54,521 nt of DNA from Acidimicrobiia bacterium (GTDB lineage: Bacteria; Actinomycetota; Acidimicrobiia; Acidimicrobiales; Poriferisodalaceae): positions 1 through 54,521 of the forward strand of contig JAJDZE010000130.1 of NCBI GenBank assembly GCA_022824805.1, read 5' to 3'. The notes under the pieces are model-generated. The model ran no database searches. It was not told where the DNA came from and saw only the letters and a list, made by a program, of their open reading frames with translations. The position numbers were made by a program, and so were the translations under genes. This document shows, one piece after another, positions 4,710-45,783 of the stretch; position 1 is the stretch's first letter; each line of letters opens with the position of its first letter.

Positions 4710-6079
4710 GCGGCACATCGCCTGAGCAACGCATCCTCGTCATCGGCGCGGGTTATGTCGGACTGACGACGGCGGCGTGCTTCGCCCACCTCGGCCATGA
4801 CGTCATCTGCGCGGACATCGACCGGGCCAAGGTGGCGTCCCTGTCGGCTGGCGTGGTGCCCATACGCGAAGTCGATCTGGATCGGCTCGTGGCCGAAGGC
4901 ATCGCTGCGCGACGCCTCCGGTTCGTGATCTCGGCCGAGGCCGTAGCCGCCACGTGCGACTTCGTCTTCGTCTGCGTGCCGACTCCGTTGCGTGCCGACG
5001 GCGAGACCGAGCTCAGCTACTTGCTGGCAGCGCTCGATTCGGTGGCGCCTCGCCTGCAGCCCGGCTCGGTGGTGGTGACGAAGTCGACCGTGCCGGTGGG
5101 AACAGCGCCCAAGATCGCGGCGGCCTTGGGGCGCACCGATGTGGCGCTGGCGTCGAATCCCGAGTTCCTGCGGGAGGGCAGCGCAGTGGCCGACTTCCTG
5201 TCACCCGATCGGATCGTCATCGGGGCCGAGGATCTCTCGGTGGCACGCCGGGTCGCGGCGCTGTATGCCCGCGTGGAAGCACCGGTCATCCTGAGCGATC
5301 CCACCTCGGCCGAGACTGTCAAGTACGCGGCAAATGCCTTCCTGGCCGCCAAGGTCTCGTTCGTGAATGCGCTGGCCGCCGTCTGCGAAGCGGTCGGCGC
5401 CGACGTCGACACGGTTCTTGCCGGGGTCGGCACCGATCACCGCATCGGCTCGGCATACCTGCAACCCGGCCCCGGCTGGGGCGGCTCGTGCCTGCCAAAG
5501 GACACCCGCGCCTTGGTATCGGTCGCCAACGACGCCGGTTATGTCTTCGACCTGCTCGAAGGCGTCATCGCGGTCAACGAGCAGCAGCTCGACCGGGTGG
5601 TGGCGAAGGTTGCTCGCATGGTTGTGGCCGAGCCGGACAAGGTGACGGATCCGGGTGCCGCTGACGGGGCCCCGGCATCTGTTGACCTCGACGGTGTCAC
5701 GGTGGCCATGCTGGGCCTCACCTTCAAAGCCGGCACCGACGACCTGCGCGGCTCTCCCGCACTGCGGGTCGCCGAGCGGCTGAGCGCGACCGGGGGGCGC
5801 CTCGTGGCGTACGACCCGGCGCTGGTCGACCTTGACGTCCGGCCCGACATCGCGTCACAGCTGCCGGCGGCCGTGCACGTCCGAGGCTCGGCGATCGAGG
5901 CCCTGAACGGCGCCGATGTGGCGGTCGTGCTGACCGAGTGGCCCGAGTTCGCGGGCCTCGACTGGGAGCGGGCGGCATCGGAGATGGCCGCAGCTCGCAT
6001 CGTCGACGCCCGCAACCTGCTCGACGCCAACCAGCTACGCGCCGCAGGCTTCACCTACGAGGGCCTCGGACGGCGCTGA
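4706..6079 (+). CDS. ugd: UDP-glucose/GDP-mannose-type 6-dehydrogenase
   Basis: 457-residue NAD-dependent nucleotide-sugar dehydrogenase that oxidises the C6 hydroxyl of a UDP- or GDP-sugar to a uronate. The N-terminal Rossmann motif is GAGYVGLTTAACF, followed by CVPTPLR and the NPEFLREGSAV segment. The catalytic cysteine lies in GPGWGGSCLPKDTRAL at about residue 260, and a C-terminal UDP-binding domain contains LTFKAGTDDLRGSPAL. Length is normal for the family (about 430-460). It overlaps the LCP gene by 4 bp. UDP-glucose is the likelier substrate from the overall pattern, but GDP-mannose cannot be excluded and would suit the GDP-mannose genes nearby. The product would feed an acidic wall or capsular polymer. 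Confidence 0.87.
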   Translation: MSGTSPEQRILVIGAGYVGLTTAACFAHLGHDVICADIDRAKVASLSAGVVPIREVDLDRLVAEGIAARRLRFVISAEAVAATCDFVFVCVPTPLRADGETELSYLLAALDSVAPRLQPGSVVVTKSTVPVGTAPKIAAALGRTDVALASNPEFLREGSAVADFLSPDRIVIGAEDLSVARRVAALYARVEAPVILSDPTSAETVKYAANAFLAAKVSFVNALAAVCEAVGADVDTVLAGVGTDHRIGSAYLQPGPGWGGSCLPKDTRALVSVANDAGYVFDLLEGVIAVNEQQLDRVVAKVARMVVAEPDKVTDPGAADGAPASVDLDGVTVAMLGLTFKAGTDDLRGSPALRVAERLSATGGRLVAYDPALVDLDVRPDIASQLPAAVHVRGSAIEALNGADVAVVLTEWPEFAGLDWERAASEMAAARIVDARNLLDANQLRAAGFTYEGLGRR

Positions 6080-44664: not shown

Positions 44665-45783
44665 GTGAAGCGGCTTGCGTGGCGAGTGACTTCGGTGGTC
44701 GTCTGCTGCGTCGTGGGAGCTGGCCTGCTGGCCGGTTGCAGCAGCGACAGCGACGAAACACCCCAGACGGTGGCTGCCAGCACGGCCGCACCAGCGGCCG
44801 CGACGACCGAGCTGCCAGCGAGTCCGACAACGGCCCCTGCATCTGCTGAGCAAGCAGCATCCGAAGGCTCTGCGCAGGACGCCGACACCGCTGACGAGAC
44901 GGGCGATGATGCCACCGACCAAACCGCCGCGCAGACCGATGACGGGGATGTCGGCGACGGCGCGGATCAGGCGGCTGTCTCGCAGCCCGGCGACGCAAGC
45001 GACGACCAGGCCCCGACTGACAGCGACGAAAGCGACGGTGGGGACCAGGCGGAACCGGCCGAAAGCGAATCCAGCGAGACCGCCGAACAGCCGGCCGACG
45101 ACGAGGGTGGGGAGGAGACCGACGAGAGCGCCACTGTCGACGAGGGGGCGGCTGAGGACATCACTGATGATCCAGCCGACGACAGGGCTGACGATGAATC
45201 CGACGAGGGTGAGGACGAGACCGACGGCAGTGAGGTGTCCGACGAGGAGGACGACGCCGAAGATGCCGAGGCAGACGATTCTGCAAGCACCGAGGACGAG
45301 GGCGATGCTGAGGAGGTCGAGCAAGACCCAGAGGGAGATGACGCCGAAGAGGCTGTCACCGATGCCGAGCCCAGCGAGGATCGGCCCAAGGTGCTTGCGC
45401 TGGCCGTCGCACAAGTCGACGGCACGACGCTCGACGTCAGTGCATTTGCTGGCCGCGACGTGCTGGTGTGGTTCTGGGCGCCGTGGTGACCGAATTGCCA
45501 GCGGGAGGCGCCTGCGGTCGCAGCGCTGAAGACACAACACGGAGGCAACTTGGCCCTCGTCAGCGTCGGGGGACATGACACCGCGTCGGCCATCTCACGC
45601 TTCGTGAGCTCCTACGGACTCGGCCACATGCCGAACTTGCCCGATACCGAGAATCAGCTCGCCAGAGCGCTCGGCGTCAGCTATCACCCCCGCTGGCTGC
45701 TGATCCGCGCGGACGCCACTGAGCAGGCGGGTGGCGGCGCGATCCCTGACGCTGTCGTGACCGACGCCCTCACCCCCGGCTGA
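44665..45783 (+). CDS. Candidate selenoprotein: thioredoxin-like (TlpA/ResA type) lipoprotein with in-frame UGA (Sec)
   Basis: 372 residues if UGA 45487-45489 is read as selenocysteine (residue 275). GTG 44665 is preferred (GTG 44662 adjacent). The N-terminus is a lipoprotein signal (VVVCCVVGAGLLAGC, lipobox LAGC). Residues ~30-240 are an acidic, low-complexity Asp/Glu/Ser/Thr/Ala linker. The thioredoxin domain starts around VLALAVAQVDGTTLDVSAFA and reaches WFWAPW-UGA-PNCQREAP, where UGA stands for the first Cys of the CxxC site (UxxC). The frame then continues 97 codons through ALVSVGGHD and the cis-proline GVSYHPRWLLI to TGA 45781-45783. A SECIS-like hairpin follows the UGA. Read conventionally, the protein would stop just before its active site. 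The alternative is a nonsense mutation of a Cys codon. It would act outside the membrane as a thiol/selenol oxidoreductase. Confidence 0.75.
45487..45489 (+). other. In-frame UGA at the redox-active cysteine position (proposed Sec codon)
   Basis: The codon follows GCG CCG TGG (A-P-W) and precedes CCG AAT TGC (P-N-C). In TlpA/ResA and thioredoxin relatives this position is the N-terminal, solvent-exposed Cys of WCxxC, the commonest place for selenocysteine in redox selenoproteins. Single-base change from TGC or TGT would also give TGA, so mutation must be considered. Confidence 0.7.
45507..45527 (+). promoter_or_regulatory. SECIS-like hairpin downstream of the UGA
   Basis: GCG (45508-45510) pairs with CGC (45524-45526), C45511 is bulged, CTGC (45512-45515) pairs with GCAG (45520-45523), and the apical loop is GGTC (45516-45519). 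E. coli fdhF has the same plan: a 3-bp lower stem, one bulged base on the 5' side, a short upper stem and a GGUC loop bound by SelB. Here the upper stem has one more pair, and the bulge is C rather than U. The loop starts 26 nt after the UGA, within the usual 16-37 nt range for bacterial SECIS elements. Confidence 0.65.

What the first reader, a model, noticed from the sequence alone, without database searches (positions are those of the whole stretch)
44665..45783. UGA in place of the redox cysteine of a thioredoxin-like lipoprotein: probable new selenoprotein
Seen: two open segments in the same frame are separated only by UGA 45487-45489. The codon sits at WFWAPW-UGA-PNCQ, exactly where WCxxC thioredoxins have their first Cys. 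The 97 codons after it encode the rest of a thioredoxin fold, including the cis-proline segment. Known: selenocysteine most often replaces this catalytic Cys in redox proteins (UxxC). Inferred: a secreted, lipid-anchored selenol/thiol oxidoreductase on a long acidic tether. A recent nonsense mutation remains possible.
Basis: partly seen in the sequence, partly recalled or inferred. Interest (0 to 1): 0.93.

Follow-up and report, generated by a model that had tools for sequence, protein, structure and literature searches.

The report
Tethered thioredoxin-like lipoprotein with selenocysteine
In this Acidimicrobiales bacterium a gene carries a UGA codon where related proteins have their reactive cysteine; all 11 genomes of its genus keep that codon and the genome encodes the selenocysteine machinery, so the gene likely makes a membrane-anchored selenium enzyme predicted to swap disulfide bonds, a product that the database copies seen here cut short at the UGA.

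Summary
Confirmed. One frame, 44665-45783, is interrupted only by UGA 45487-45489, at WFWAPW-UGA-PNC. The genome has tRNA-Sec (anticodon UCA), neighbouring selA and selB, and a selD that itself carries an in-frame TGA. All 11 genomes of the genus keep the UGA at a syntenic locus and have a second, ~50% identical UGA paralogue. The 97 codons after the UGA are under purifying selection (pooled dN/dS 0.20). A 4-bp hairpin with a GGUC loop stands at a fixed place after the UGA in 32 of 32 sequences examined from this taxonomic family, but in 1 of 80 Cys homologues from elsewhere and 0 of 13 Cys paralogues of the family. TGA forms were listed in 61 of 87 selA-positive and 0 of 32 selA-negative genomes. 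The fold is closest to DsbF and MPT53. So this is almost certainly a real selenoprotein: predicted lipoprotein, UxxC thioredoxin fold, ~212-residue acidic tether. UxxC redoxin-type selenoproteins are a known kind; this clade passes no NCBIfam cut-off, and the database copies seen end at the UGA. Whether it reduces or oxidises substrates is open: CcdA/DsbD-type and DsbB-type partners are present, VKOR was not found. There is no protein evidence.

The parts
44665..45783 (+). Predicted selenoprotein coding sequence, 372 residues with Sec275, stop TGA 45781-45783 (start codon not certain)
   Evidence: TGA kept in 11 of 11 genus genomes; purifying selection on both sides of the UGA
44665..44739 (+). 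Signal-peptide-like stretch ending in lipobox LAGC; Cys25 (44737-44739) is the predicted lipidated residue
   Evidence: Sequence and motif pattern; same LL-A-G/S-C pattern in 10 of 11 genus loci, the eleventh (L024) having a run of N upstream; no signal-peptide predictor was run
44740..45375 (+). Acidic, low-complexity tether, 212 residues, 81 Asp/Glu, 1 Lys/Arg
   Evidence: 195-223 residues and 33-43% Asp/Glu in the 10 genus loci measured, 36-71 residues with at most 18% in the other-genus loci measured
45376..45780 (+). Thioredoxin-fold (redoxin) domain
   Evidence: Pfam; AlphaFold2 model pLDDT 95.4; DsbF 3ios TM 0.82
45487..45489 (+). UGA codon predicted to encode Sec275, at the place of the first Cys of WCxxC
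45496..45498 (+). Cys278, second residue of the UxxC pair (predicted resolving Cys)
   Evidence: Invariant in the 29-row alignment
45507..45527 (+). SECIS-like hairpin: 5 bp, one bulged C, 3 bp in the window's MFE; loop GGUC 45516-45519. Only the upper four pairs are conserved beyond the genus
   Evidence: synonymous-change desert at codons +7 to +14
45688..45690 (+). Pro342, the cis-proline position of the thioredoxin fold
   Evidence: Invariant column P106 of the alignment; that it is cis is inferred from the fold family

Best explanation
The in-frame UGA at 45487-45489, kept in all 11 genomes of the genus, is very likely read as selenocysteine, and the gene would then make an exported, lipid-anchored thioredoxin-fold protein with a UxxC active site on a long acidic tether. 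SelA, tRNA-Sec and SelD would supply Sec-tRNA, and SelB would deliver it on binding the hairpin that follows the UGA: the genes and the hairpin are shown, the decoding is inferred. Outside the membrane the selenolate would attack substrate disulfides or oxidised thiols, and Cys278 would resolve the intermediate (inferred from the fold). I commit to a disulfide-reductase or repair role with electrons from the CcdA/DsbD-type membrane protein; direction and partner are the weakest step (about 0.55). The tether would let the domain reach away from the membrane (inferred).
For: Sec machinery: tRNA-Sec 66.3 bits, anticodon tca; SelB 268.4 and SelA 392.8 bits, neighbours on C178; SelD 339.7 bits with its own in-frame TGA. 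UGA in 11 of 11 genus genomes and in a paralogue in 11 of 11; synteny with a LigT-like gene in 10 of 10 genus relatives. dN/dS 0.203 after the UGA, dN below dS in 55 of 55 pairs. Hairpin in 32 of 32 sequences of the taxonomic family, 1 of 80 outside Cys homologues, 0 of 13 Cys paralogues of the family, with covariation and a synonymous-change desert. TGA forms listed in 61 of 87 selA-positive and 0 of 32 selA-negative genomes. Terminal stop is also TGA in 11 of 11. Role: fold; DsbD_TM match in 35 of 39 family genomes, 32 over cut-off, including 11 of 11 of the genus; no VKOR over cut-off in 39 of 39.
Against: No protein or expression data. MFE folding of the 60 nt after the UGA is no better than shuffles (z +0.87), the 21-nt hairpin alone only slightly (24 of 200 shuffles as good), and in several genus members the 60-nt MFE is another structure. 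GGTC stands at +30 in 18 of 80 Cys homologues too, so the loop alone is weak; two of five covariation measures do not exceed shuffles. Outside the family the strict hairpin was absent in 3 of 3 and in 8 of 9 TGA loci. For the reductase direction: DsbB is present in 11 of 11 genus genomes, DsbF/MPT53 are oxidants in vitro, and the CcdA-type gene has its own Cys-type thioredoxin-like neighbour.
Confidence: 0.9

Rival explanations
1. Same selenoprotein, but it works as an oxidant: a DsbF/MPT53-like enzyme that puts disulfides into exported proteins and is recharged by the DsbB-type membrane protein.
For: Best profile and fold matches are DsbF 3ios and MPT53 1lu4, both oxidants of hirudin in vitro and without insulin reductase activity (PMC3853704, passages). 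DsbB family in 11 of 11 genus genomes.
Against: Identity in the structural match is only 24-27%. CcdA/DsbD-type protein is present in 11 of 11 genus genomes. That Sec mostly serves reductive or peroxidatic chemistry is recalled.
Confidence: 0.35
2. Nonsense mutation or pseudogene: the UGA stops translation and the downstream half is decaying.
For: The database copies seen end at WFWAPW, but that is what gene callers do at any UGA.
Against: TGA at the same codon in 11 of 11 genus genomes and in the paralogue; downstream dN/dS 0.203, no other stop in the 97 codons; hairpin and Sec machinery.
Confidence: 0.02
3. UGA is read through as another amino acid, by code change or leaky suppression, and not as Sec.
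For: None found; not excluded without protein data.
Against: The same gene ends in TGA in 11 of 11 orthologues; the UGA sits at the catalytic Cys column; TGA forms were listed only in genomes with SelA; tRNA-Sec(UCA) present.
Confidence: 0.03
4. Both products matter: a truncated acidic lipoprotein ending at the UGA when selenium is scarce, and the full enzyme when it is plentiful.
For: The tether is long and acidic in the 10 genus loci measured; any Sec codon gives some termination (recalled).
Against: Tether sequence varies freely between orthologues, and the paralogues and other genera have short ones, so no sign of selection for a separate truncated product.
Confidence: 0.08

Closest known systems
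'Redoxin family protein' (PF08534, UxxC) and 'Thiol-disulfide isomerase-like' (cd02966, UxxC) selenoproteins of the prokaryotic lists (PMC13188914, PMC9312934); Trx-like 1 (COG0526, UxxC) of the GOS survey (PMC2398784)
   Same: Thioredoxin-like domain, Sec in place of the first Cys of CxxC; PF08534 matches this protein over its cut-off
Mycobacterial DsbF (3ios) and MPT53/DsbE (1lu4)
   Same: Best PDB relatives by profile and by fold; exported Actinomycetota enzymes with a WCxxC site
   Different: Cys, not Sec; solved proteins are single domains without a ~200-residue acidic tether; 24-27% identity in the structural alignment
NCBIfam selenoprotein models NF041054 (ResA-like WAxxUGC), NF041057 (Rcas_1661 (seleno)lipoprotein), NF053656 (TUGYCR)
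   Same: Thioredoxin-like families named for Sec; NF041057 is a (seleno)lipoprotein
   Different: Far below cut-off: 33.9 bits against 300 for NF041054; 11.8 against 190 for NF041057, seen with the paralogue only; NF053656 matched 3 of 29 rows weakly and not the window protein

Membership tests
Bacterial selenoproteins | In-frame UGA at a redox position that is Cys in homologues | tested here: met
Bacterial selenoproteins | Genome has selA, selB, selC, selD | tested here: met
Bacterial selenoproteins | SECIS hairpin just after the UGA, loop 16-37 nt away (rule from PMC10778597) | tested here: met
   GGUC loop at +30; conserved in 32 of 32 family sequences; energy alone not significant
Bacterial selenoproteins | Sec found in the protein | not testable with these tools
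   No proteomic data at hand
Redoxin-type UxxC selenoproteins (PF08534) | PF08534 match over cut-off | tested here: met
   46 bits against 26.6
Redoxin-type UxxC selenoproteins (PF08534) | UxxC motif | tested here: met
   U-PN-C
Redoxin-type UxxC selenoproteins (PF08534) | Sequence kinship with the listed reference protein | not tested
   Reference sequence not available here
DsbF/MPT53 disulfide oxidoreductases | Fold and profile kinship | tested here: met
DsbF/MPT53 disulfide oxidoreductases | Cys-X-X-Cys active site | tested here: not met
   UxxC, not CxxC; hence DsbF-like, not filed as a DsbF
DsbF/MPT53 disulfide oxidoreductases | Oxidative folding activity | not testable with these tools
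   Needs purified protein; genome context is ambiguous
NCBIfam selenoprotein models | Score over the curated cut-off | tested here: not met
   no model over its cut-off for the window protein or the paralogue

The most novel reading that the evidence does not exclude
Acidimicrobiales run an outward-facing selenium redox system of lipid-anchored Sec-DsbF-like enzymes, two in each genome of this genus. In this Poriferisodalis-like, probably sponge-associated genus one of them rides on a ~200-residue polyanionic arm that carries the selenol away from the membrane to substrates of the envelope or the host interface. Such exported selenoproteins would be the clients that explain why selA and selB are enriched in sponge symbionts.
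Probability: 0.3. Interest if true: 0.7.

Novelty: new member of a known kind. Interest (0 to 1): 0.55.

Why it matters
It adds a well-supported selenoprotein clade that gene callers cut off at the UGA: the database copies seen (orthologues of 242 and 279 aa; five named Ca. Poriferisodalis paralogues of 116-126 aa) end at WFWAPW. It gives a concrete client for the selenocysteine trait, which is common in the 119 genomes of this order examined (SelA match in 87). A 2017 sponge-microbiome paper reported SelA and SelB co-occurring in most symbiont bins, in the passage read without naming the selenoproteins they serve (PMC5649159). It also raises a testable question: what a selenol does outside the membrane on a long acidic arm.

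Tried and rejected
A tblastn of the plasmid collection found 14 records with relatives, all under 60% identity, and was not pursued. The genome-contig scan searched the Cys form of the motif, so it could return only Cys forms; its best 80 served as controls and gave named Actinomycetota, but no name for this genome. MFE folding of the 60 nt after the UGA gave no support; the evidence for the hairpin is comparative. A scan of the window for TGA followed by the same hairpin gave seven sites; 45487 has by far the longest open frames (311 codons up, 97 down), and the other six were not tested for homology. An alignment with one wrong coordinate (L030) was dropped and redone. Rows L033 and L037, which lack the hairpin, were left out of alignment A4, so the pair counts do not include them; they are counted in the 32 of 35. 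I first took the absence of VKOR as favouring a reductase; DsbB in all 11 genus genomes weakened that. The tree of Sec and Cys forms needs at least two changes of label, but its deep forks are weak, so I draw no conclusion on the number of Cys-to-Sec events. L143 and L145 escaped the first motif pattern and were looked at again: both have U at the same place; their hairpins were not scored.

Full report
What is there. The frame 44665-45783 is open except for UGA 45487-45489. The first part has a lipoprotein-type signal (LLAGC, Cys25) and then 212 residues with 81 Asp/Glu and 1 Lys/Arg. The second part is a thioredoxin-fold domain which the UGA interrupts at WFWAPW-UGA-PNC; Pfam redoxin families match across it. 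The AlphaFold2 model of the domain (29-row alignment, Cys for Sec) has mean pLDDT 95.4. Its best PDB matches are DsbF 3ios (TM 0.82, 27% identity) and MPT53 1lu4 (TM 0.79, 24%), then ResA; a profile search ranks the same two first.

The genome encodes the selenocysteine machinery. tRNA-Sec with anticodon tca lies at C163:51570-51661, 66.3 bits against a cut-off of 47. A second Rfam hit just over the cut-off (47.6 bits) is tRNA-Ser by ARAGORN. SelA (392.8 bits, cut-off 267.9) and SelB (268.4 bits, cut-off 242.25) are neighbours on C178, and the SelB frame has the SelB winged-helix domain. SelD (339.7 bits, cut-off 125) starts at the edge of contig C36 and carries its own in-frame TGA, at GAG-U-ACK.

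The UGA is conserved and the second half is selected. All 11 genomes of the genus have TGA at this codon, and all 11 have a second gene, 48-52% identical over the domain, also with TGA. The locus is syntenic: the LigT-like gene stands near it in 10 of 10 genus relatives and TrpC in 9 of 10; in G001 the contig ends there, and in G005 TrpC is about 3 kb away. Pooled dN/dS is 0.203 over 97 codons after the UGA and 0.120 over 37 codons before it, with dN below dS in 55 of 55 pairs in each part. The gene's own terminal stop is TGA in 11 of 11, so UGA is not simply reassigned.

A SECIS-like hairpin. I had 35 TGA sequences in hand: 29 of the 30 loci returned (the thirtieth has Cys) and 6 more. In 32 of 35 a 4-bp stem with a GGUC loop stands at exactly +30: 32 of 32 from the same taxonomic family (10 genera) and 0 of 3 from elsewhere in the order. 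At the same place it stands in 1 of 80 Cys homologues from outside the family, although 18 of 80 have GGTC there, and in 0 of 13 Cys paralogues from the same family; two of the 15 stretches fetched gave no CxxC by the pattern. Those paralogues are more distant thioredoxin-like proteins, so they control for lineage, not for close kinship. Of nine TGA loci from elsewhere in the order and phylum one had the strict hairpin at +30, though five have GGTC there: the exact hairpin is a family-level trait. Counting pairs on 27 distinct rows, with the hairpin-lacking rows L033 and L037 left out beforehand, 97.2% of cells pair against 83.7% in shuffles. U-A, G-C and C-G alternate at pair 27-36, C-G and G-U at 26-37, with 11 double-changed cells against 2.5 in shuffles. 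Two of the five measures (pairs with a double change; number of pair types) do not exceed shuffles. Within the genus, codons +7 to +14 show no synonymous change in 8 of 8 amino-acid-invariant codons, against change in 56 of 75 elsewhere; a permutation of the longest run gives P 0.003. Folding energy alone gives no support, and in several genus members the MFE of the 60 nt is another structure. The loop distance fits the bacterial range of 16-37 nt in PMC10778597 (passages). Likeness of the loop to the E. coli fdhF SECIS is recalled only.

Co-occurrence. Of 119 genomes of the order examined, 87 have a SelA match (84 over cut-off). A TGA form is listed for 61 of these 87 and for 0 of the 32 without SelA. 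The match list was cut at about E 3e-9, so this counts listed matches only; among genomes with any listed row it is 61 of 77 against 0 of 18. In a sample of 296 genomes across the phylum, the listed rows include TGA forms in 19 genomes of other classes; in 11 of 11 loci fetched by that call (two of them from the order) the U is at the same place.

Whose genome. Names are not given. G114 of the order has a contig of the same length (39,231) as a record titled 'uncultured Acidimicrobiales bacterium', and the two domain sequences are identical. The nearest TrpC bearing a genus name is from Candidatus Poriferisodalis sp., 88% identical; that genus lies in Acidimicrobiales. That the organism lives in sponges is inferred from that name. 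Database copies of the orthologue (P0033, P0034) and of the paralogue in Ca. Poriferisodalis (P0011, P0022, P0025, P0030, P0031) end at WFWAPW.

What it does. Shown: fold model, motif, lipobox pattern. Inferred: a selenol/thiol-disulfide oxidoreductase outside the membrane. Partner genes: DsbD_TM (CcdA-type) match in 35 of 39 genomes of the family, 32 of them over cut-off (own genome); VKOR over cut-off in 0 of 39, with one sub-threshold match in G005; DsbB in 20 of the 25 family genomes examined, including all 11 of the genus. Beside the CcdA-type gene lies a frame with a Cys-type thioredoxin-like motif. The nearest solved relatives are oxidants in vitro, with a DsbD-type protein thought to be their membrane partner (PMC3853704, passages). 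I favour a reductase at about 0.55, given the selenoprotein reading.

Known or new. Reviews list UxxC selenoproteins with PF08534 and cd02966 domains (PMC13188914, passages; PMC9312934, passages), and the GOS survey lists Trx-like 1 (PMC2398784, passages). Passages of PMC1794560 and PMC5029168 were also seen: the first counts 12 selenoprotein families in Actinobacteria, and the second has no occurrence of Acidimicrob. By domain and motif this protein belongs to the known kind. It passes no NCBIfam cut-off. A paper search for selenocysteine with Acidimicrobi gave 3 papers; I read passages of one (PMC5649159), which reports SelA and SelB in most sponge-symbiont bins. A search for Poriferisodal gave none; further searches were (listings). 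Only the open-licence library was searched, so earlier description elsewhere is possible.

Noticed in passing
G000:C162:25622-26023 (L049, UGA at 5734-5736): Second selenoprotein candidate of the same kind with the same hairpin and a short linker; on the other strand, upstream of it, lie lipoamide dehydrogenase, 2-oxoacid dehydrogenase E2 and lipoate genes.
   Followed up: partly
G000:C36:1-933 (L017): SelD itself has an in-frame TGA at its catalytic position (GAG-U-ACK), so it is probably a selenoprotein too; the contig begins inside the gene.
   Followed up: partly
TGA loci outside the taxonomic family: L033, L037, L041, L144, L146, L147, L149-L153: These TGA forms lack the strict GGUC hairpin at +30, although several keep GGTC there; their SECIS must have another shape, not worked out.
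   Followed up: partly
G000:C191:5666-6298 (L142): The CcdA/DsbD-type gene lies just downstream of a frame with a Cys-type thioredoxin-like motif (FFASWCVPC), which may be its usual partner.
   Followed up: no
L024 / L055 (G004:C18): In this orthologue the tether holds a run of N and an EEV repeat array, hinting at fast repeat-driven tether evolution.
   Followed up: no
G114:C190:7146-7493: One relative is listed with two in-frame TGA codons within the domain match, possibly two Sec residues.
   Followed up: no
G007:C69 and G007:C71: This genome has two near-identical copies of the window-type gene on small contigs (97% and 96% identity to the window), a duplication or mixed strains.
   Followed up: no
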